Shown in pieces: positions 9,584 to 35,023 of a stretch of DNA of 64,000 nt. The stretch lies in the IMG/VR virus record IMGVR_UViG_3300021137_000001, positions 124,001 through 188,000 of that record; one strand, given 5' to 3'. The translations under genes were made by a program, and so were the position numbers. This DNA comes from a virus. The notes under the pieces were generated by a model that saw only the letters and a program-made list of their open reading frames with translations, ran no database searches and was not told the DNA's origin. Each line of letters begins with the position of its first letter. The first letter of the stretch is position 1.

Positions 9584-10201
9584 ATGAACCAACCATACAC
9601 ATATTTAATCGGATGGAGTACCCAGCAAAAATATTATTACGGAGTACGCTATGCCATTGATTGTAATCCCACTGATCTTTGGGCAAAATACTTTACATCT
9701 TCGCCTACTGTTAAAGCAATGCGATTAATTTATGGTGAACCAGATGTGCGCCAAATTAGAAAAATATTTACTGACAAACAAGCTGCAAGATTATGGGAAA
9801 CAAAAGTATTACGCAGAATGAAAGTAATACGTAGAGAAGAATTTTTAAACAAGAATGATGCGCCGGCTCCTCCAATAAACAATAGAATTATGTCGGATTC
9901 AACTAAAGAAAAAATAAGTGCGTCTAATAAAAGTAAGCCTAAATCAGAAGAGCACAAACAAAAGATTAGAGAAGCAAGAGCAAAACAAATTAATACAAGA
10001 AAAGGGCAGACTCAAACTGAAGAAACAAAACAAAAGATTAGAGAAGCAAGAGCAAAACAAATTACGTCAGATGAAACAAAACAAAAAATGAGTATGCAAC
10101 AAAAATTAGCAGGTGGGTATGGTCCTAAAAAACACACCGAAGAAACAAAACAAAAAATTAGAAATACATTAATGGAAAAATTTAAAAAGGGTAGTATATG
10201 A
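9584..10201 (+). CDS. GIY-YIG homing endonuclease with NUMOD3 repeats
   Basis: The N-terminal domain shows the GIY-YIG core as Y-L-I-G ... Y-Y-Y-G-V-R (residues 7-22) and a catalytic-type Glu in LWETK. From residue 105 on there are three copies of the NUMOD3 DNA-binding repeat (E-E-T/H-K-Q-K-I-R). The 205-residue size fits Seg-type phage endonucleases. It overlaps the dehydrogenase start by ATGA and separates that gene from its old 5' end. Confidence 0.9.
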   Translation: MNQPYTYLIGWSTQQKYYYGVRYAIDCNPTDLWAKYFTSSPTVKAMRLIYGEPDVRQIRKIFTDKQAARLWETKVLRRMKVIRREEFLNKNDAPAPPINNRIMSDSTKEKISASNKSKPKSEEHKQKIREARAKQINTRKGQTQTEETKQKIREARAKQITSDETKQKMSMQQKLAGGYGPKKHTEETKQKIRNTLMEKFKKGSI

Positions 10202-11427
10202 ATAATGTAGGATTTGTAGGGTTAGGGAAATTAGGAATGGCATGTGCAGAAGTGATGGCACAAACATATGACGTCACTGGCTATGATATTTACCCACGTA
10301 CTGGTGATAAGATAGCAATATCTGATACATTAGAAGGAGCAGTAAAGGGCAAGGATGTTATCTTTGTTGCAGTACAAACACCGCATGATCCGATCTATGA
10401 TGGCTCGCAACCAATTACACATTTACCAAACAAAGACTTTGATTATACAATTATAAATCAAGTATTAGCAGACATTAATCAATACGTTACGCAAGATCAA
10501 CTTGTAGTATTAATCAGCACAGTACTACCAGGAACAACACGTAGAGAGCTACGTAAGCATATCACTAACGCACGTTTCATCTATAACCCATACTTAATTG
10601 CAATGGGTTCTGTAGCGTGGGATATGGTTAACCCAGACATGATTATTATCGGTACAGAAGATGGTAGCGTAACTGGTGATGCTAAGTTGCTTACAGACTT
10701 TTACGCACCACTAATGCAAAACAATCCACATATTGCAATTGGCACATGGGATGAAGCAGAAGCAATTAAAATCTTCTACAATACATTTATTAGTACTAAA
10801 GTTGGCTTAGTAAACATGATACAAGACGTTGCTATGAAGTCAGGCAACATTAATGTTGATGTTGTAACTGACGCATTATGCGCTTCTACTATGCGTATCA
10901 TTAGTACAAAGTATATGACAGCGGGTATGGGTGATGCAGGCCCGTGTCACCCACGTGATAACATTGCGCTACGTTGGTTAGCTGAGAATTTAGACTTGGG
11001 CTACGATATTTTTAATACAGTTATATATGCACGTGAGATACAAGCAAAGAATCTTGCTATATATCTTAGTGATTTACAAGAATTAACTGATTTGCCTATC
11101 GTTATACACGGAAAAGCGTACAAGCCAGATGTGGATCTATTAGATGGCAGTTATAGCCTCTTAATCGGCAGTTATCTGACTGAAATAGGAGCAAAATACA
11201 CTTATTCTGATCCTTTAACAGGTGACATTGTTGCTGATGACACAACTGCTATTGTACTACTTGCTCACAATAGAACTATTACCTACGGTTACACCGGCGA
11301 ACTGCCAGAACAACAATTGTATTACCGACTTGGATTAAGTAGTATTGTAGTTGACCCGTGGCGCAAGTTTAAAACAGACACAAAATCAATTAAGGTTCTG
11401 CATTATGGCAACACACGAATTAATTAA
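10198..11427 (+). CDS. UDP-glucose/GDP-mannose 6-dehydrogenase family protein
   Basis: The 409-residue protein opens with an NAD-binding Rossmann motif (G-F-V-G-L-G-K-L-G) and carries the catalytic-cysteine phrase G-P-C-H-P-R-D with Cys 250, then G-K-A-Y-K-P-D in the UDP-binding third domain. Enzymes of this family oxidise a nucleotide sugar to the uronic acid in two NAD-dependent steps. Several family blocks are shortened relative to bacterial enzymes. It heads a run with a 2OG oxygenase and an amidinotransferase, all overlapping, so they probably act together, and it likely supplies a modified sugar; the product is unknown. Confidence 0.88.
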   Translation: MNNVGFVGLGKLGMACAEVMAQTYDVTGYDIYPRTGDKIAISDTLEGAVKGKDVIFVAVQTPHDPIYDGSQPITHLPNKDFDYTIINQVLADINQYVTQDQLVVLISTVLPGTTRRELRKHITNARFIYNPYLIAMGSVAWDMVNPDMIIIGTEDGSVTGDAKLLTDFYAPLMQNNPHIAIGTWDEAEAIKIFYNTFISTKVGLVNMIQDVAMKSGNINVDVVTDALCASTMRIISTKYMTAGMGDAGPCHPRDNIALRWLAENLDLGYDIFNTVIYAREIQAKNLAIYLSDLQELTDLPIVIHGKAYKPDVDLLDGSYSLLIGSYLTEIGAKYTYSDPLTGDIVADDTTAIVLLAHNRTITYGYTGELPEQQLYYRLGLSSIVVDPWRKFKTDTKSIKVLHYGNTRIN

Positions 11428-16944: not shown

Positions 16945-17168
16945 TTGATAACTGTCGTATTAACTTTTGGTTACGCTGGGTCGCTTGCTGTATTACAATA
17001 GCAGGCGCACTCTGCACTAGCTTTCGTATCGACCCACTTAACATTTACTTGTTAAACATCGGCGCTGTAGTGTACTTAACGTGGAGTATACGCATTAAAG
17101 AAACAAGTTTAATTACAATCAACGTGGCGCTACTAACGATTTACTTTATTGGATTGTTTGTAAAATGA
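16935..17168 (+). CDS. Small three-helix membrane protein
   Basis: The 77-residue product has three membrane helices and the phrase I-K-E-T-S-L-I-T-I-N between helices two and three. The protein at 62212-62442 has the same layout and a matching N-E-K-S-L-I-T-N phrase, so they are paralogues. Start may also be the ATG at 16941. Function unknown. Confidence 0.65.
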   Translation: MGMIDNCRINFWLRWVACCITIAGALCTSFRIDPLNIYLLNIGAVVYLTWSIRIKETSLITINVALLTIYFIGLFVK

Positions 17169-17587
17169 CAAAAGACTGGGTTTCACCTGAAGAGAATAAA
17201 GCTAAGAAAGATGCTTATTATTCTAAATTATCAAACGACACTAATCGTTCATTAACTTATTATTGGCAACAAGCTCGCAAGGGAGCAAGAGATCGGAAAA
17301 TTGATTTTAGCATTACTGCCGATGATATTATTTCTCTCTGGTCAAAACAACGAGGATTTTGTAAGTTAAGCAACATACCAATGACACTTACGCACGGAAC
17401 ATTACGATCACAAAATCCTACAAAAGTAAGTTTTGACCGAATTGATAATTCTAAAGGATATCATGTAGGGAATATTCAATTAGTTACGTGGCAGGTAAAT
17501 TGTGCGAAAAGTGTTTGGTCAACTGATCAATTAGTTGAACTATGTATATCTATTACTGAGAAAGCATTAATGAATAAATTAAAATAG
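17165..17587 (+). CDS. HNH-type homing endonuclease-like protein
   Basis: The 140-residue protein carries C-K-L-S-N-I-P-M, F-D-R-I-D-N-S-K-G-Y and G-N-I-Q-L-V-T-W-x-x-N-C-A-K, the signature of a phage HNH subfamily in which D-R-I-D replaces the usual first His pair. It overlaps the previous gene by ATGA, so it is read from the early operon rather than a late promoter. Confidence 0.7.
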   Translation: MTKDWVSPEENKAKKDAYYSKLSNDTNRSLTYYWQQARKGARDRKIDFSITADDIISLWSKQRGFCKLSNIPMTLTHGTLRSQNPTKVSFDRIDNSKGYHVGNIQLVTWQVNCAKSVWSTDQLVELCISITEKALMNKLK

Positions 17588-17977: not shown

Positions 17978-18571
17978 TTACTTGGACAAGTTATTCACCC
18001 ATTGTGTATATTGTTGGATAGCCATTTCTTTTCTGTCAGATATACGGCATATGATCTTTGGTAATGGTTTACGTAGGTTTGCTTTAAAGGCTTCGGATTT
18101 GGGCTTACGCAAATTTTCTTTAAACTCTTCGGACCGAATATATACTCCGATAATTCCTTTGTTCCACGGAATACATCCTTGTTCCCACTGACCTTTAAGA
18201 TTATCCTTATGCTCCTGCGATCTATTTTTGGCAAGATTAGACATCTTTTTCCGAGTTTCAATTGAACGATTTCCTCCATCGCCGCCGTAGCTCATATTAT
18301 ATCCGTTGCCATAATCAACGTGGGTATTATATTTGCGGATAAAGAATTCTTCCATTTCAAGTAAGGTATGTTGCTTGTCGGTGGATTGATATAGCACAGA
18401 CCAAACAAATGCCTCCCAACCATATTTACGTATAGCGGCATAGAAACGAGAATTCTTTTTAATTGAATTTCTTTTATGATCAGCACAGCGAGTAGGCCAA
18501 GAAGAATCAAATCCGATATAGGATTTACCATTTATTGTGTTAGTGGCTTTATAGATTGAATAAATATTCAT
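17978..18571 (-). CDS. GIY-YIG homing endonuclease
   Basis: Starting at Met 18571 the product opens with I-Y-S-I-Y-K-A-T and S-Y-I-G-F-D (GIY-YIG core), then a helix with an Arg and a Glu (LLEMEEFFI), a G-N-G-Y-N-M-S-Y-G-G-D-G-G stretch and NUMOD3-like repeats (W-N-K-G-I, S-E-E-F-K-E-N-L-R-K-P). About 197 residues. The longer frame to 18640 lacks a ribosome site, whereas TAAGGA lies upstream of 18571 in the loop of a small hairpin. Confidence 0.88.
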   Translation of the reverse strand: MNIYSIYKATNTINGKSYIGFDSSWPTRCADHKRNSIKKNSRFYAAIRKYGWEAFVWSVLYQSTDKQHTLLEMEEFFIRKYNTHVDYGNGYNMSYGGDGGNRSIETRKKMSNLAKNRSQEHKDNLKGQWEQGCIPWNKGIIGVYIRSEEFKENLRKPKSEAFKANLRKPLPKIICRISDRKEMAIQQYTQWVNNLSK

Positions 18572-18633
18572 GCTGACATTCCTTAAAATGTTAGAGTCCT
18601 TAGATATTACCAGTATCGTGAGGGACATTTTTG

Positions 18634-18662
18634 TTGACAACGTATTAAATTTCTGTTATAAT
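18634..18662 (+). promoter_or_regulatory. Sigma-70-type promoter for the DksA-like gene
   Basis: TTGACA (18634-18639), 17 bases, TATAAT (18657-18662). Confidence 0.82.
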
Positions 18663-19008: not shown

Positions 19009-19629
19009 ATGCCGAATTTAGTCCCAATGGTAGTAGAACGTACAAGTCAAGGCGAACGTGCTTATGACATTTATTCACGTCTACTTAAAGATCGTATCGT
19101 TATGTTAGATACAGATGTTAACGAGCAGACAGCAAGTTCAATCGTTGCACAGTTGCTATTTTTAGAAAGCGAAAGCCCAGAGAAAGACATTTTGTTCTAC
19201 ATTAACTCACCGGGCGGAAGCGTAACTGCTGGCTTGGCAATTTACGATACAATGCAGTTTATTAAATGCGATGTGTCGACTATTGTACTTGGACAAGCAT
19301 GTTCAATGGGTTCATTCTTGGCGCAAGCTGGTGCTAAAGGTAAGCGTATTGTATTGCCAGAAGCACGTACAATGATTCATCGAGTTAGCTCCGGCACTCC
19401 GGGCACACGTGGTAGCGTACACGTACAAGAATTACAATTCGAAGATGCTAAACGTAGCTTTGACGAATCAATGCGTATTAATCAACGCTTAACTGAATTG
19501 TATGTACGTCATAATACTGCGGGAAAAACTTACGAAGACTTATTTGAAACTATGAAGTTTGATACGTTCTTATCAGCAGACGAAGCAGTAGCATATGGTT
19601 TGGCAGATGAAGTTATTACAAAACGTTAA
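19009..19629 (+). CDS. clpP: ATP-dependent Clp protease proteolytic subunit
   Basis: The 206-residue product has full family length with the catalytic triad Ser 99 (G-Q-A-C-S-M-G), His 124 (T-M-I-H-R) and Asp 185 ([10 protein letters not shown]) and the N-terminal P-M-V-V-E-R-T that forms the axial loops. It would form a tetradecameric barrel and work with host ClpX or ClpA, since no Clp ATPase gene is in the window. A tmRNA gene 4 kb downstream, whose tag would send stalled proteins to Clp, makes a joint role plausible. AAAGGAAATACA precedes the ATG. It overlaps the radical SAM gene by one base. Confidence 0.95.
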
Positions 19630-20942
19630 TGCTTAAAGATACATTTTGCTCAAGTCCATGGTTTCATATTAGGATAGGGCCATCGGGTAAATTTTTACCT
19701 TGCCGATGGGGGTCGCATGACGATACTGGTTATAATATTGCAACAACATCTATCGCAGAATTTATGAATTCTGATATCATGCAAGGAATTAGAGCCTCTC
19801 TATTAGATGGTGACAAATTACGTATGTGCAGTAGTTGTCATTATGAAGATTCGAACAATAAAGTAAGTGGACGTCAACGCCAACTCTTAAAGAGCGTAAT
19901 TAGTATTACAAATTTTGATAAGACATTTTGTGCAAGCCCACATTATGAAATATTTGAATATAGTGCCACTAATAATGGTCATACTAATAGTTTGCCAATT
20001 GATTTACAAATTGATCTCGGCAATACTTGTAATAGTGGTTGTATTATGTGTACTCCGACTTATAGCAGTAAATTATCTAACGACTATGTTAAACTTAACA
20101 AACTAGAACCGACATTATTTAAATCCTTTTCTAAATTTAAGAATTGGGCAGATGATCCAATATTAATGGATAAGTTTGTAGCAGAATTAATTACTATTCC
20201 TAACATTAAATACATACATTTCTTGGGTGGTGAAACACTTTACTTAAAAAGTTTTTATGATATTTGTGAAAGATTAATAGAAGCAGGAGTTGCGAAGGAT
20301 ATTAATATCGGAACAACAACTAATTGTACTGTGTATTCAGAAGAATTAGAAAACATTATTAAGAATTTTAAGCATGTTCATTTGGGACTTAGTATTGAAT
20401 CTCTACATGAAGTTAATGATTATATTCGTTATCCGAGTACGATTGATTCAGTATCATCGAACATTCAGAAATTTTTGGATCTTAGAAAGCAAACTAATTT
20501 ACATTTAAGTTTGCGTATAACGCCGACTATCTTCAGCATTTATCATTTAGATACATTATTTGAATTTATGATTAATAATTCTATTATTGCAGAAAGTTGT
20601 GATATATTATACGAACCGAGTTGGTTACGAATTGAACTATTGCCACCAAATTTAATTGCTATTGCACTTGAAAAACTTAATGCAGTTATAAATAAATATC
20701 AATTAACCAATAGTAATCAGGTTATTATTAATCGCAGGCGAGATGATTTGATTGACCCAGTTATTACAAGCATACTTTTTGAATATAAACATTTCCTTGA
20801 GAATTACCAAGTACCCAATGATGTGGACGAAGAACGCCACAATTTAGTTAAATTTATTAAAGCATTCGAATCATTGCGCAATAATACAATATTGGATTAT
20901 CTCCCAGAATATGAAGAATTTTTACGACAGTACGGTTATTAA
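19629..20942 (+). CDS. Radical SAM protein with N-terminal cysteine-rich extension
   Basis: The radical SAM cluster motif C134-x3-C138-x2-C141 follows the beta strand I-D-L-Q-I-D-L-G-N-T, and G-G-E-T comes about 75 residues later as expected for SAM binding. The N-terminal region has C25, C67 and C70 in an arrangement like the twitch/SPASM auxiliary cluster domains, here placed before the core. 437 residues. The substrate is unknown; such phage enzymes are usually thought to modify peptides, nucleotides or lipids. It is coupled to clpP upstream and to a 127-residue gene downstream. Confidence 0.82.
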   Translation: MLKDTFCSSPWFHIRIGPSGKFLPCRWGSHDDTGYNIATTSIAEFMNSDIMQGIRASLLDGDKLRMCSSCHYEDSNNKVSGRQRQLLKSVISITNFDKTFCASPHYEIFEYSATNNGHTNSLPIDLQIDLGNTCNSGCIMCTPTYSSKLSNDYVKLNKLEPTLFKSFSKFKNWADDPILMDKFVAELITIPNIKYIHFLGGETLYLKSFYDICERLIEAGVAKDINIGTTTNCTVYSEELENIIKNFKHVHLGLSIESLHEVNDYIRYPSTIDSVSSNIQKFLDLRKQTNLHLSLRITPTIFSIYHLDTLFEFMINNSIIAESCDILYEPSWLRIELLPPNLIAIALEKLNAVINKYQLTNSNQVIINRRRDDLIDPVITSILFEYKHFLENYQVPNDVDEERHNLVKFIKAFESLRNNTILDYLPEYEEFLRQYGY

Positions 20943-23440: not shown

Positions 23441-23459
23441 AAGAAATTGTTGTATAACT

Positions 23460-23509
23460 CTCAAAGTAAGGATTGCAAGACGCGGGGGCAGAACCCGCCA
23501 TCTCCACCA
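23460..23509 (+). ncRNA. ssrA: tmRNA acceptor piece (3' half), 5' boundary approximate
   Basis: Contains the 3' strand of P2, the T arm and the 3' strand of the acceptor stem ending CCA. The T loop reads GGCAGAA (23487-23493), not the standard TTCRANY; altered T loops are a feature I would expect only in two-piece or degenerate tmRNAs. Confidence 0.85.
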
Positions 23510-23567
23510 AAGATATATTAAGCAATATTGGCAAGAAACGCCATAAGTTCGGTAGTATATCTTTGAT

Positions 23568-23786
23568 GGGGATGACTTAGATTCGATTGCGATAGATAGG
23601 ATAAAGGGCAACACGTGGGGTCACGTTAAATGCAAAAACCGTAAATGCAGAAAAAGCAAATACAACTGGTGCAGTAAAAGTATCTATGGGTCGTGGCTTC
23701 CGCTTCGGTTCACGTACTGATGCTGCTGTTTTAGCTTAGTCTAAAACAACCGGGGTAGGACTTACCTGGCAACAGAAACAACCAAA
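23568..23786 (+). ncRNA. ssrA: tmRNA coding piece (5' half), 3' boundary approximate
   Basis: Begins with the conserved GGGG start and D-loop-like ACTTAGATTCGA, then the 5' strand of P2, a pseudoknot, the tag frame and a pseudoknot at 23750-23770 with CCGGGGTAG and TACC. Ends before the terminator. Confidence 0.85.
23647..23739 (+). other. tmRNA tag reading frame, about 30 codons
   Basis: The most likely resume codon is GCA at 23647, after GTAAAT. The frame runs A-E-K-A-N-T-T-G ... F-R-F-G-S-R-T-D and ends A-A-V-L-A before TAG (23737-23739). Two other in-frame GCA codons, at 23632 and 23656, could be the resume point. The end A-V-L-A resembles the hydrophobic Clp-recognised ends of bacterial tags but lacks the final L-A-A. 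Confidence 0.75.
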
Positions 23787-23808
23787 AAGCCCCGCAAGGG
23801 GCTTTTTT
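23783..23808 (+). terminator. Rho-independent terminator of the tmRNA gene
   Basis: AGCCCC pairs with GGGGCT over a GCAA loop, flanked by A and T runs. Confidence 0.9.
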
Positions 23809-23832: not shown

Positions 23833-24234
23833 ATGGGAAGACCAAAACTAATAGAAACAGAAGAAGAACGCAGACTACGATTACGAGCTGCTTATAACCG
23901 ATGGATAGCAAAACCTGGTAATAAGGAAAAGAAATATAAATCGGATAAGAAATATTCAGCAGACGCACATAAGCGTTGGCGTCAAGCAAATAAGCATAAG
24001 ACACGATTAAAAAGTGCCAACGAACGAGCCGCAAGATTACAGAGAATCCCACCGTGGGCAGATAAAGAAGCGGTTAAAGAGTTTTATCTAAGCTGCCCTG
24101 CAGGATATCATGTTGATCATATAATTCCGTTGCGTGGTAAAATAGTAAGCGGACTACATATAGTAGAGAATATGCAATATCTTATAGCTGAAGTAAATTT
24201 AAGTAAAAGTAACAAATATGTGATATCCGCCTAA
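23833..24234 (+). CDS. HNH homing endonuclease inserted beside the tmRNA
   Basis: The C-terminal half has Y-H-V-D-H-I-I-P-L-R-G and G-L-H-x-x-E-N-M-Q-Y-L, the HNH pattern of bacterial and phage endonucleases (D-H ... N ... N/H). The N-terminal half is a very basic helical DNA-binding region. 133 residues. It lies between the tmRNA and a second copy of the tmRNA 3' pseudoknot, which suggests that the tmRNA gene was its target. Confidence 0.85.
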   Translation: MGRPKLIETEEERRLRLRAAYNRWIAKPGNKEKKYKSDKKYSADAHKRWRQANKHKTRLKSANERAARLQRIPPWADKEAVKEFYLSCPAGYHVDHIIPLRGKIVSGLHIVENMQYLIAEVNLSKSNKYVISA

Positions 24235-24418: not shown

Positions 24419-25408
24419 ATGAGTAAATCTGAAGATTTAAAAATGCAACCTTTTGATCCTAGTCAAGGACGCAAAGACAAGAAAGTGTCTTTGATTCAAG
24501 TTGGACGAATGGTCCAAAAACGAGTCGGCACTATTGCAACAAACCCAAGTTTCCCATACCAAGATATATTAAAGTTTGCATGGGTGCCTGCTGAATTAGT
24601 TTATTTTAATTATGAGCGCCAACGTTGGCCTGAGCCAAAACACCAAAAGAAACTACGTGGTAAGTGGAATATTCATTGCGTAACTCCGCTTCAATGCCGT
24701 TATAGTCCTAGCGAAAATCGTTACTATGGTGCAGATGGTCAACAACACTCCACTGAGTGGATTGCGCAGTATGGAGAGCAAAGCATGGTTCCTGTATTCT
24801 ATGTTGAGAGTGAGGACGAAAATGTAGAATCGATTATGTTATTGGCACTTAATAATGATAATGAGCCGATGGCAAAATATTTTATTCACCAACAAGAAGT
24901 TATCATGGGTGAGAAAGATGCTGTTGCCCTTGAAAATTGTGTTATCGATGCTGGTTGTACTACCGGCTACAAAAAACGTACAGCAGGAGTTATTACTCAC
25001 ATCAGTGATTTAACCATGGCCCGGGATCAGTTTGGGTTAGGTGCGCTAGGACAAATTTTAAGTAAAATGCGTACATATTGGCCGACTGAAAAAATCGCCA
25101 CAGCAACTATGCTAGGCTTCCTTAAAGTTCGTGAACTTATGATATCTGCTGAATTATATACAGATGACTTATTTGAAGATGTTGTATATCAAAATTCAAA
25201 TTTCTTTGAGAGTAGTGATAGACTTCACGGCGACATTAAGGATCAATTTGAATATGAGTACCCAACAAACTACAAGGGTATGGGTGTTCGTGAAAAAATT
25301 GCAAGCGGTATCATTGATGCGTATGAATATAAGACTGGTAAAACATTAGTTGCCAAACCATTTAGCATTACGATGCCAGTAATCGATGATGAACTAAAGG
25401 CGGCATAA
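24419..25408 (+). CDS. ParB/Srx-like nuclease-fold protein
   Basis: The 329-residue protein has V-P-A-E-L-V-Y-F-N-Y-E-R-Q-R-W-P (binding-site phrase like ParB-type R-x-R) and a middle domain G-Q-Q-H-S-T-E-W-I-A resembling the DUF6551/ParB-like N-domain found in phages, followed by a helical C-terminal half. Function in phages is not settled; DNA binding or nicking is likely. It overlaps the following HNH gene by one base. Confidence 0.6.
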   Translation: MSKSEDLKMQPFDPSQGRKDKKVSLIQVGRMVQKRVGTIATNPSFPYQDILKFAWVPAELVYFNYERQRWPEPKHQKKLRGKWNIHCVTPLQCRYSPSENRYYGADGQQHSTEWIAQYGEQSMVPVFYVESEDENVESIMLLALNNDNEPMAKYFIHQQEVIMGEKDAVALENCVIDAGCTTGYKKRTAGVITHISDLTMARDQFGLGALGQILSKMRTYWPTEKIATATMLGFLKVRELMISAELYTDDLFEDVVYQNSNFFESSDRLHGDIKDQFEYEYPTNYKGMGVREKIASGIIDAYEYKTGKTLVAKPFSITMPVIDDELKAA

Positions 25409-25851
25409 TGGCAAAATTATATAATAAATATGACCCCGGCACATATCATAGCCGTACCCTTTATCGTATAGTTTGCAATACCAATGACTTACGTCCTGTT
25501 TGGGCATATAAAAATGCCAACAAATGGGGTGTAGAAAACGAACCGTTTTTAAAACTATGCGGCGAAATGTGCTCGTGTTGTGGAAGTACTTTAAACTATG
25601 GATTAGGTAAAAACAACATAGAAGATAAACTTGATATTAACACTCCTAGCACCGATCATATTGTGTCGCAGGACGAAGCTAAAAAGTTGGGTTGGTCTAA
25701 GGAACAAATACATGACATAAGCAATCTTTGGATTATATGTATGCGATGCAATTTGTTGAAAAATAATTCAACCGCAGAAGATATACATCGTTACAAGGCA
25801 ATTGTGGAAGTATTAGAACGTACTAAATTAAACAGTATATTAATTGAATAA
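25408..25851 (+). CDS. HNH endonuclease with zinc-binding cysteines
   Basis: Two C-x2-C pairs (C-S-C-C and C-M-R-C) frame T-D-H-I-V-S and N-L-W-I-I-C-x-x-C-N-x-x-K, the classic zinc-bound HNH layout. 147 residues. It is translationally coupled to the ParB-like gene, so it may be a homing endonuclease that joined this operon or a functional partner. Confidence 0.82.
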   Translation: MAKLYNKYDPGTYHSRTLYRIVCNTNDLRPVWAYKNANKWGVENEPFLKLCGEMCSCCGSTLNYGLGKNNIEDKLDINTPSTDHIVSQDEAKKLGWSKEQIHDISNLWIICMRCNLLKNNSTAEDIHRYKAIVEVLERTKLNSILIE

Positions 25852-25965: not shown

Positions 25966-27856
<1,891 letters not shown>

Positions 27857-32973: not shown

Positions 32974-34308
32974 ATGATAAACGCTATTTTAGAAGAAGTT
33001 GCAAACGAACCAAGTAAGAATGCAAAAATTGCTATCCTTACTCAGCATAAAGACAATAAAGTATTACAAGAAGTTGTTCGTTTAACCTACGACCCAACTG
33101 TAAACTTCTTCATTAAGAAAATTCCTACATACAAACAAATTGATACAACAGATATCAGTTTAACAGAAGCAATTAGTCAACTTGGTCAGTTAAGCAGCAG
33201 ACAAGTTACTGGTACTGCTGGTATTAATCATTTACAAAATATTCTAAGTAACTTACCTGAAGAAAAAGCAAAAGTAATTGCTAAAATTATTGACCGTGAC
33301 TTACGTGCGGGCTTCGGTGAGTCAACAGCAAACAAAGTATGGAAGAATTTAATTCCAGAGTTTCCATATATGCGTTGCGCACTTCCTAAAGCCGCTAAGT
33401 TAGATGAGTTTAGCTGGGTTGATGGTGTGTTTAGTCAGCTTAAAGCAGATGGTATGTTTGCCAACGTAAATCATACAGCAGATGGCGAAGTACAAATTTT
33501 AAGTCGCGCTGGTTCATTGTTTCCACAACAACACTTTGCACATTTAGTCACTGATGTACAAGCAACGTTCCCAACTAATACACAATCACATGGTGAATTG
33601 TTAATTAAACGTGATGGTGTTGTGCTTCCCAGACAGTTAGGTAACGGTATCTTAAACAAGGTACAAAAAGGTGGCGACATTGGACCAAATGACGAGATTG
33701 TTTACTTAGTTTGGGACCAAATTGCCTTAACTTCAGTCGTTTCTAAAGGTACTTACAATGTTCCGTATAAAGCTCGCTTTGCTGAATTAGCAACACAAAC
33801 ATTAACGGCAACTTGTATTACCCTAATCCCAACTGTTATTGTACATAACATGGAAGATGCACTTACACACTATCGTGAAATGCTTGCAGAAGGATTAGAA
33901 GGCACAATCATTAAAGATGCACAGGGTATTTGGAAAGATACAACAAGCAAACAACAAGTTAAAATGAAACTCGAAACAATCATTGATCTTATTATCACTG
34001 GGTTTAATGCAGGTAAAGGTAAAAATGAAGATACATTTGGTTCTATTGCTTGTCGATCAAGTGATGGCTTACTTGAAGTTAATGTAAGCGGCTTTACTGA
34101 TTCAGATAGAATCAGTATCTGGGCAAGCAAGGACGAAGTAATTGGCAAGATTATGGCAGTTAAATCTAACAGCATTATGCCACCGAGTGATAGTAATACA
34201 AGTTACTCATTATTTTTACCACGTTGCGAAGAAATTAGAGATGATAAACAAATAGCAGATGATTTACAACGTATCATCGATCAATTTGAAAGCGCAATTA
34301 AGGATTAA
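32974..34308 (+). CDS. ATP-dependent DNA ligase, T4 gp30-like
   Basis: The nucleotidyltransferase lysine is K157 in L-K-A-D-G, with downstream motifs S-R-A-G-S (motif III region), E-G-T-I-I-K-D (motif IV) and Q-V-K-M-K (motif V). The N-terminal region matches the start of T4 ligase in order and spacing, and 444 residues is close to T4's 487. It seals nicks in the phage DNA. Start 32974 fits the T4-like N-terminus better than the in-frame ATG at 32962; neither has a strong ribosome site. Confidence 0.93.
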   Translation: MINAILEEVANEPSKNAKIAILTQHKDNKVLQEVVRLTYDPTVNFFIKKIPTYKQIDTTDISLTEAISQLGQLSSRQVTGTAGINHLQNILSNLPEEKAKVIAKIIDRDLRAGFGESTANKVWKNLIPEFPYMRCALPKAAKLDEFSWVDGVFSQLKADGMFANVNHTADGEVQILSRAGSLFPQQHFAHLVTDVQATFPTNTQSHGELLIKRDGVVLPRQLGNGILNKVQKGGDIGPNDEIVYLVWDQIALTSVVSKGTYNVPYKARFAELATQTLTATCITLIPTVIVHNMEDALTHYREMLAEGLEGTIIKDAQGIWKDTTSKQQVKMKLETIIDLIITGFNAGKGKNEDTFGSIACRSSDGLLEVNVSGFTDSDRISIWASKDEVIGKIMAVKSNSIMPPSDSNTSYSLFLPRCEEIRDDKQIADDLQRIIDQFESAIKD

Positions 34309-34963
34309 TTCTTTTCATGACACCTACGTATTTTATATTCTTGTAGGTGTCAAATTCTTCTTTTGTGACACGTAATGTTAATCCTGTTACCAGATCACGT
34401 GCGCTCACCATACGACTATTAGTGCCTGAGACTTTATTCTTACATAGGTCTGATTGAGTTTTACCATACATTCCATTACCTTCTCCTGTACGTTGATCTG
34501 AGAATTTAGCACAAACAATATCACTGTGCTTTTTGCCCAACATACCACGGGGATGATTCAGTTGGCGCACTTCTTTAAGATGTTGTTTGGTTTCAATTGA
34601 ATGTTTCTTTCCTAGCATTCCTCGAGGATGTGGTATAGTTGCCATTTGTGCTTTGCGTATAATAGATATCTTTTTCTTTGTTTCATTGGACATTACATAA
34701 CCAGAGTTACCTTCGCCACCGTCTGTTAAATTACGTAATATGCCAGTACCATTACTTTTACGCCCATACAGCGCAATAAGTTTCTTTTCAAATAAGTGTG
34801 CTTCGTACTCGAAAAGTTTGTGTGCTATTATTTGTATAAGGTCTTTATTCTTCGGAGGAATATGATTCTTACCCTTTGACCACGCACGTTTTCCTTTGCC
34901 TTTGCCAATATAATATGGAGTTAAATCTTCTCTGAGGTATGCGTAAACGTAATAAATAGACAT
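34298..34963 (-). CDS. GIY-YIG homing endonuclease with NUMOD3 repeats
   Basis: Y-V-Y-A-Y-L ... Y-Y-I-G-K-G is the GIY-YIG core, followed by R-A-W-S-K-G-K, E-K-K-L-I-A-L-Y-G-R and repeated H-P-R-G-M-L-G-K-K-H-S modules. About 221 residues from Met 34963. It overlaps the ligase 3' end by 11 bases on the opposite strand. The leader CTCTAACATT ... CAGCATG is shared with the GIY-YIG gene at 18571. Confidence 0.9.
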   Translation of the reverse strand: MSIYYVYAYLREDLTPYYIGKGKGKRAWSKGKNHIPPKNKDLIQIIAHKLFEYEAHLFEKKLIALYGRKSNGTGILRNLTDGGEGNSGYVMSNETKKKISIIRKAQMATIPHPRGMLGKKHSIETKQHLKEVRQLNHPRGMLGKKHSDIVCAKFSDQRTGEGNGMYGKTQSDLCKNKVSGTNSRMVSARDLVTGLTLRVTKEEFDTYKNIKYVGVMKRINP

Positions 34964-35023
34964 GCTGGCATTGTTCCATAATGTTAGAGCTAGTGGATAC
35001 TTCAATATCGCGACTAGCACTTT

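What the first reader, a model, noticed from the sequence alone, without database searches (positions are those of the whole stretch)
23441..23786. Circularly permuted two-piece tmRNA encoded by a phage
Seen directly: the acceptor half ending CCA lies upstream of the GGGG-starting coding half, and they pair in two independent helices (7-bp acceptor stem with the G-U alanine identity wobble, 7-bp P2). One-piece tmRNA is the bacterial norm; permuted genes are known from alpha-proteobacteria, some beta-proteobacteria and cyanobacteria. A viral copy would let the phage rescue its own stalled ribosomes and mark products for Clp, and hints at the host lineage.
Basis: partly seen in the sequence, partly recalled or inferred. 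Interest (0 to 1): 0.9.

Follow-up and report, generated by a model that had tools for sequence, protein, structure and literature searches.

The report
Phage tmRNA with a conserved long tag
A giant bacterial virus carries its own two-piece ribosome-rescue RNA, which is a known kind of gene; unusually, this RNA writes a 30-residue tag with a conserved core shared only within one group of giant phages, its tRNA-like half has apparently been swapped, and the phage also encodes a protease (ClpA, ClpP, ClpS) that could read the tag.

Summary
Window 23448-23786 is a circularly permuted (two-piece) tmRNA gene: Rfam tmRNA_permuted 91.6 bits (cut-off 47), alpha_tmRNA 71.4 (cut-off 50). It lies inside a 329-kb phage record. 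Phage-borne two-piece tmRNAs are already published, and a capped scan of viral contigs gave 119 more, so the headline claim is not new. Three things go beyond it. (1) The tag is 30 aa (AEKANTTGAVKVSMGRGFRFGSRTDAAVLA), not the usual ~10. Its core VKVSMGRGFRF[G/A] recurs in tmRNAs of related giant phages; all 24 viral stretches matching that core are tmRNA tags, and the core varies mostly synonymously. (2) The tRNA-like domain behaves as an exchangeable cassette: a close relative is 97% identical in the tag module but 61% in the tRNA-like domain, which is alpha-type here and beta-type there. (3) The phage also encodes ClpP (4 kb away), ClpA with a ClpP-docking loop, ClpS and GroES/GroEL, but no detected SmpB. 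Most likely mechanism: it rescues stalled ribosomes with host SmpB and adds a phage-specific tag, probably read by Clp proteases, perhaps the phage's own ClpAP. Degradation and the core's role are inferred. A general tmRNA-ClpP association was tested and not found. New variant of a known kind.

The parts
23448..23509 (+). Acceptor piece: P2 5' strand (23448-23453), T-arm GCGGG-GGCAGAA-CCCGC (23482-23498), acceptor 3' strand 23499-23505, A73 23506, encoded CCA 23507-23509
   Evidence: RF04321 and RF01849 alignments; direct parsing and cofold
23510..23567 (+). 58-nt intervening segment of the precursor, predicted to be removed; forms a 13-bp helix on top of the acceptor stem
   Evidence: removal is inferred from known two-piece tmRNAs
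23568..23786 (+). Coding piece: acceptor 5' strand GGGGATG (23568-23574), D-region, P2 3' strand (23608-23613), resume site GTAAAT|GCA, tag, conserved 3' element ACCTGGCAACAGAAA
23647..23739 (+). Tag reading frame, 30 aa AEKANTTGAVKVSMGRGFRFGSRTDAAVLA plus TAG stop (23737-23739)
   Evidence: same frame called by ARAGORN in the sister phage; same GTAAAT before the resume codon in many viral tmRNAs
23674..23709 (+). Conserved 12-codon tag core VKVSMGRGFRFG
23784..23808 (+). Intrinsic-terminator-like hairpin AGCCCC-GCAA-GGGGCT with T-run, directly after the tmRNA
   Evidence: sequence; scan listed it on the other strand
19009..19629 (+). Phage ClpP, with the catalytic Ser, His and Asp sequence contexts present
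   Evidence: PF00574 221 bits; NCBIfam ClpP subfamily 255 bits; motif check
25966..26259 (+). Phage GroES
   Evidence: PF00166 107.8 bits
26246..27856 (+). Phage GroEL
   Evidence: PF00118; TIGR02348 783.8 bits over cut-off

Best explanation
The locus makes a working two-piece tmRNA of a giant phage. A single precursor, read with the upstream genes and ended by the hairpin at 23784, folds so that the acceptor stem closes on the 58-nt segment. Host RNase P and tRNA-processing nucleases free the CCA end (23509) and the GGGG start (23568), leaving two base-paired pieces. The alanine-charged RNA with host SmpB (none found in the phage) enters stalled ribosomes, translation resumes at GCA 23647, and the 30-aa tag is added before release at the TAG. 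The tag exposes a C-terminal ...AAVLA degron-like end, and its conserved core VKVSMGRGFRF[G/A] is probably a recognition element for a protease or adaptor, most economically the phage's own ClpA(S)P. Shown: gene structure, tag frame, conservation of the core in related phages, and presence of ClpP/ClpA/ClpS and chaperonin genes. Inferred: processing, charging, ribosome rescue, degradation, and what the core binds.
For: Covariance matches above curated cut-offs. Acceptor stem 7/7 paired with G3-U70; across 102 distinct tRNA-like domains the variable acceptor pairs change on both sides (the viral set was first selected by a pattern fixing parts of both strands, so only the inner pairs are informative). 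Strong fold, z -4.2. The tag core recurs in related phages, also when they are found through ClpP and not through the tag; core pN/pS 0.14-0.32 against 0.82 in the five codons before it. All 24 viral stretches with the core codons are tmRNA tags. ClpP, ClpA with an IGF docking loop, and ClpS are encoded; ClpA is found in 12 of 15 records of the clade. tmRNA lies about 2-5 kb from clpP in most long-tag members (coordinates).
Against: No expression or processing data. ARAGORN misses this copy, and several inner pairs next to P2 are not standard in the covariance alignment. No SmpB in the phage, so function depends on the host factor. The C-termini of long tags vary (AVLA, ATFA, AAFA, ELVA, ALAA, AVAA), so a single Clp degron is not guaranteed. 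Some relatives with the same ClpP carry ordinary 10-aa tags, so ClpP and long tag are not obligately coupled. ClpA is below the equivalog cut-off of its NCBIfam model although ClpA is the best family.
Confidence: 0.72

Rival explanations
1. An ordinary phage tmRNA whose tag is just another degron: rescued products go to host ClpXP, and the long tag has no special role beyond an extended linker. The conserved core reflects common descent in a young phage clade.
For: C-termini ALAA/AVAA in many long-tag members; other phages of the clade manage with 10-aa tags; strong ClpP genes are not significantly more frequent in tmRNA-bearing viral contigs (4-6 of 36) than in random ones (3 of 50).
Against: Within the core most changes are synonymous while flanking codons change amino acids freely; the core survives in divergent members (G012, G097: VKV...FRFG) while flanks and ends differ.
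Confidence: 0.35
2. The tag is not mainly a Clp degradation signal: the tmRNA captures stalled ribosomes and adds a peptide that has another job, for example binding a phage or host protein or sending products to another protease such as Lon, as the YAFA-ending tags of Mollicutes do.
For: Non-LAA ends (VLA, TFA, AFA, LVA) in part of the family; Mollicute tags ending NYAFA are read by Lon (PMC9382460).
Against: Other members keep ALAA/AVAA ends; the phages carry ClpAP; no partner was found (a search of the ORFs of G000 and G012 for the core motif gave nothing convincing).
Confidence: 0.2
3. A decaying or inactive copy carried by chance, picked up from a host.
For: Unusual T-loop GGCAGAA, shared only with one relative, G128; not called by ARAGORN.
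Against: All acceptor and T-stem pairs, G3-U70, CCA, resume motif and an open tag frame are intact; the tag module is 97% identical to the sister's; related phages keep the gene near clpP.
Confidence: 0.08
4. Instead of cassette exchange, the tRNA-like domain of this phage diverged quickly from a beta-type ancestor (a rival to the evolutionary part of the account only).
For: AU tests on the 59 alignable columns do not reject either grouping (p 0.65 and 0.95).
Against: Identity drops from 187/193 in the module to 36/59 in the domain against the sister, while the sister's domain is 59/59 identical to phages whose modules match only 138/176; T-loop GGCAGAA and 16 of 17 D-region bases are shared with the alpha-type tmRNA of G128; best covariance model switches from beta to alpha.
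Confidence: 0.15

Closest known systems
Permuted two-piece tmRNA (Rfam RF04321; alpha RF01849, beta RF01850)
   Same: Gene order, acceptor stem with G3-U70, encoded CCA, intervening segment, P2, resume site, tag frame, above cut-off
   Different: 30-aa tag with a conserved core instead of about 10 aa; ends AVLA; carried by a phage
Two-piece tmRNAs of marine phages such as Methylophilales phage Melnitz and pelagimyophages (PMC9004378)
   Same: Phage-encoded, alphaproteobacterial-type permuted tmRNA; 53 phages with two-piece tmRNA reported there
   Different: No glutamine riboswitch was matched here at Rfam's cut-offs; giant phage with its own ClpAPS and GroEL; long conserved tag; exchanged tRNA-like domain
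tmRNA and SmpB of huge phages (PMC7162821)
   Same: Ribosome-rescue genes in phages over 200 kb
   Different: There found by ARAGORN, which misses this copy; here no SmpB
Mollicute tmRNA tags ending NYAFA, read by Lon (PMC9382460)
   Same: Non-LAA C-termini in some family members; that Mollicute tags are also long is my own knowledge
   Different: No shared core; different lineage and gene form

Membership tests
Permuted (two-piece) tmRNA | Covariance-model match above curated cut-off | tested here: met
   RF04321 91.6 vs 47 bits; RF01849 71.4 vs 50
Permuted (two-piece) tmRNA | Acceptor half upstream of coding half, separated by an intervening segment | tested here: met
   CCA at 23507-23509, GGGG at 23568, 58 nt between
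Permuted (two-piece) tmRNA | Alanine identity G3-U70 pair, A73, CCA end | tested here: met
Permuted (two-piece) tmRNA | Open tag frame starting with a GCN resume codon after a TAA(A/C)-like motif | tested here: met
   GTAAAT|GCA, 30 codons, TAG; same frame in sister by ARAGORN
Permuted (two-piece) tmRNA | Mature RNA in two pieces, charged with alanine, SmpB-dependent tagging | not testable with these tools
   needs RNA-seq and biochemistry
Alphaproteobacterial tmRNA subtype | Alpha-type T-loop (GGC[AG]GNA) and alpha model as best clan member | tested here: met
   Loop GGCAGAA; RF01849 best in its clan; but the tag module is shared with a beta-type relative
Standard SsrA degron (C-terminal LAA) | Tag ends in -AA, mostly LAA | tested here: not met
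   Ends AVLA here; LAA in 53 of 68 distinct automatically called tags of other viral tmRNAs
Complete ClpAP protease | ClpP with catalytic triad and ClpA with IG(F/L) docking loop in the same genome | tested here: met
   (sequence level only)
Self-contained trans-translation system | SmpB encoded with the tmRNA | tested here: not met
   PF01668 absent from the 329-kb record, which may be incomplete

The most novel reading that the evidence does not exclude
A clade of giant phages runs its own tag-and-degrade channel: its tmRNA writes a phage-specific peptide whose conserved core VKVSMGRGFRF[G/A] is a private address read by the phage's ClpA(S)P (or an adaptor), while the host-facing tRNA-like half is swapped as a cassette between phages, made easy because permutation puts that half in one contiguous stretch of DNA.
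Probability: 0.3. Interest if true: 0.82.

Novelty: new variant of a known kind. Interest (0 to 1): 0.56.

Why it matters
Phage tmRNAs are known but their purpose is not. A tag whose inner core is conserved across phages that differ in the tRNA-like half suggests that the tag, not only ribosome rescue, is under selection. With ClpP, ClpA and ClpS in the same genomes this gives a directly testable phage-run quality-control or host-takeover pathway. The natural exchange of the tRNA-like domain shows a consequence of circular permutation for tmRNA evolution and warns against reading the host from the tmRNA subtype. A private tag-protease pair would also be a useful orthogonal degron.

Tried and rejected
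General link between phage tmRNA and phage ClpP: strong ClpP hits (>200 bits) in 6 of 36 tmRNA-bearing viral contigs, two of them (G023, G029) looking like bacterial clpP-clpX regions, against 3 of 50 random contigs: no significant enrichment, claim dropped. Phage SmpB: not found in this record or in six relatives and other tmRNA-bearing records. Bacterial source of the long tag: a degenerate pattern in 84,980 species genomes gave two hits, neither a tmRNA; the tag peptide had no match in 50,697 phage records. Exact bacterial match of the acceptor half: none. A first tag pattern was mis-spaced and returned nothing; corrected. My first search for tmRNAs in the ClpP loci used a wrong spacing; corrected. 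AU tests on the 59-column tRNA-like domain are uninformative, so the exchange rests on the identity contrast and shared T-loop/D-region. Core motif elsewhere in the phage proteome: nothing convincing. pN/pS from the tag-selected set would be biased, so only members found through ClpP (plus this phage) were used.

Full report
What was checked. The parsed anatomy is: P2 5' strand at 23448, T-arm 23482-23498, acceptor 3' strand CATCTCC, A73, CCA to 23509; 58-nt intervening segment; acceptor 5' strand GGGGATG from 23568 (7/7 pairs, G3-U70); P2 3' strand 23608-23613; resume site GTAAAT|GCA; tag 23647-23736; TAG; a conserved ACCTGGCAACAGAAA element; terminator-like hairpin at 23784. The region folds 4.2 sd better than shuffles. 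P2 has 6 pairs rather than the 7 stated. ARAGORN misses this copy but calls the copy of a sister phage with exactly the homologous tag frame.

Where it lies. The window is 124001-188000 of a 329,321-base IMG/VR virus record. It shares about 180 ORFs, many at about 50% identity, with another 318-kb record, G012; PHROGs finds phage ligase, clamp loader and tail fibre families. Identical DNA around the tmRNA occurs in contigs of three further metagenomes.

How common. Published work reports 53 phages with two-piece tmRNA (PMC9004378) and tmRNA plus SmpB in huge phages (PMC7162821). A phage permuted tmRNA is therefore not new.

The tag. Here it is AEKANTTGAVKVSMGRGFRFGSRTDAAVLA, 30 aa; the modal tag length in tmRNAs is 10 (PMC11915505), and most tags of other viral permuted tmRNAs are 8-17 aa. 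A degenerate pattern for KANT...FRFG found related tags in G012 and a sister phage 'B' (IMGVR_UViG_3300044633_000774 and two contigs identical where they overlap). Looking for relatives through ClpP instead of the tag, and then for tmRNAs by structure, gave more members with the same core, and a pattern for the core codons found 24 viral stretches, all of them tmRNA tags and none a protein. Among members found without using the tag, the 12-codon core has pN/pS 0.14-0.32 and the five codons before it 0.82 (pairwise, not corrected for the tree). G012 and G097 keep VKV..FRFG with different residues between. C-termini vary: AVLA, ATFA, AAFA, ELVA, ALAA, AVAA. Other members of the ClpP-defined clade have ordinary 10-aa tags (ANDNTFALAA, ANDSQFALAA, ANDEQFLMVA; read from the sequences). 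The tag was not found in 84,980 bacterial and archaeal species genomes with the KANT...FRFG pattern or in deposited phage genomes.

The tRNA-like domain is a cassette. Against sister B, this tmRNA matches 187/193 aligned bases in the module holding P2, tag and 3' part but only 36/59 in the tRNA-like domain (Fisher p 1e-11). B in turn is 59/59 identical in that domain to phages whose modules match only 138/176. The domain here is alpha-type (T-loop GGCAGAA), B's is beta-type. The T-loop GGCAGAA was seen in only one other member, G128 (alpha-type), which also shares 16 of 17 D-region bases although its module is much less similar and its tag differs. The module tree joins this phage and B with full support. 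AU tests on the 59-column domain are not decisive, so exchange is the likeliest, not a proven, account. Permutation places the whole domain in one contiguous stretch between the two P2 strands, so one double crossover suffices (inference).

Neighbourhood. ClpP (19009-19629, catalytic contexts present), GroES and GroEL lie within 4.5 kb on either side. The same genome encodes ClpA (G000:193107-195419; best NCBIfam family ClpA, 828 bits, ClpB 647; IGF docking loop) and ClpS (G000:102708-102944). ClpA was found in 12 of 15 clade records, the three without being 65-104 kb fragments. No SmpB was found. In most long-tag members the tmRNA sits about 2-5 kb from clpP (from coordinates). There is no general enrichment of ClpP in tmRNA-bearing viral contigs.

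Mechanism. Shown: gene structure, tag frame, conservation of the core, Clp and chaperonin genes. From established biology of two-piece tmRNAs: processing by RNase P and tRNA nucleases, alanylation, SmpB-dependent entry, resumption on the tag frame. Inferred: delivery of tagged products to Clp proteases, and a recognition role of the core, perhaps by the phage's own ClpAP. That the published literature holds no earlier description of this tag or of domain exchange rests on a few full-text searches of an open-access library and is not exhaustive.

Verdict. The bare claim is a known kind; the conserved long tag, the exchanged tRNA-like domain and the co-encoded ClpAPS make it a new variant worth experimental follow-up.

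Noticed in passing
L140 1756-2043 and 2536-2982; L141 2969-3256 and 3814-4263: Erythrobacter phages XM05 (PV416404.1) and vB_EliS-L02 (OL955261.1) have unannotated permuted tmRNAs (about 100 and 92 bits) about 0.5 kb upstream of an HslV/proteasome-like peptidase gene: another tmRNA-protease neighbourhood.
   Followed up: partly
L078 482-739 (minus strand): Tandem partial duplication of the tRNA-like domain of a permuted tmRNA about 180 bases apart; the first copy lacks an intact T-arm.
   Followed up: no
L470, L448, L482 (intervening segment between CCA and GGG): In some long-tag relatives the intervening segment is 117-194 nt and seems to hold a short open reading frame, so a protein could be encoded inside the excised part of the tmRNA precursor.
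   Followed up: no
L467, L483, L490: The tmRNA acceptor half reads CTCCACTGA, so CCA is not fully encoded in these relatives.
   Followed up: no
window 7103, 16380, 17589, 18634, 21303, 21691, 24313, 32915, 37296, 40089, 42018, 42643, 43867, 56655: Many perfect TTGACA-17-TATAAT promoters on the + strand (45 sites with at most 2 mismatches vs 21 expected); several lie in a repeated intergenic element conserved in the sister phage.
   Followed up: partly
window 17978-18640 and 34298-35020 (minus): GIY-YIG homing-endonuclease-like genes (the second by resemblance of its sequence only), and small unassigned genes at 17165-17587, 23833-24234 and 25408-25851 that look like HNH endonucleases, interspersed around the clpP-tmRNA-groEL region.
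   Followed up: partly
window 10198-11427 and 19629-20942: Host-like metabolic genes in the phage: UDP-glucose dehydrogenase and a radical SAM/SPASM protein beside clpP.
   Followed up: no
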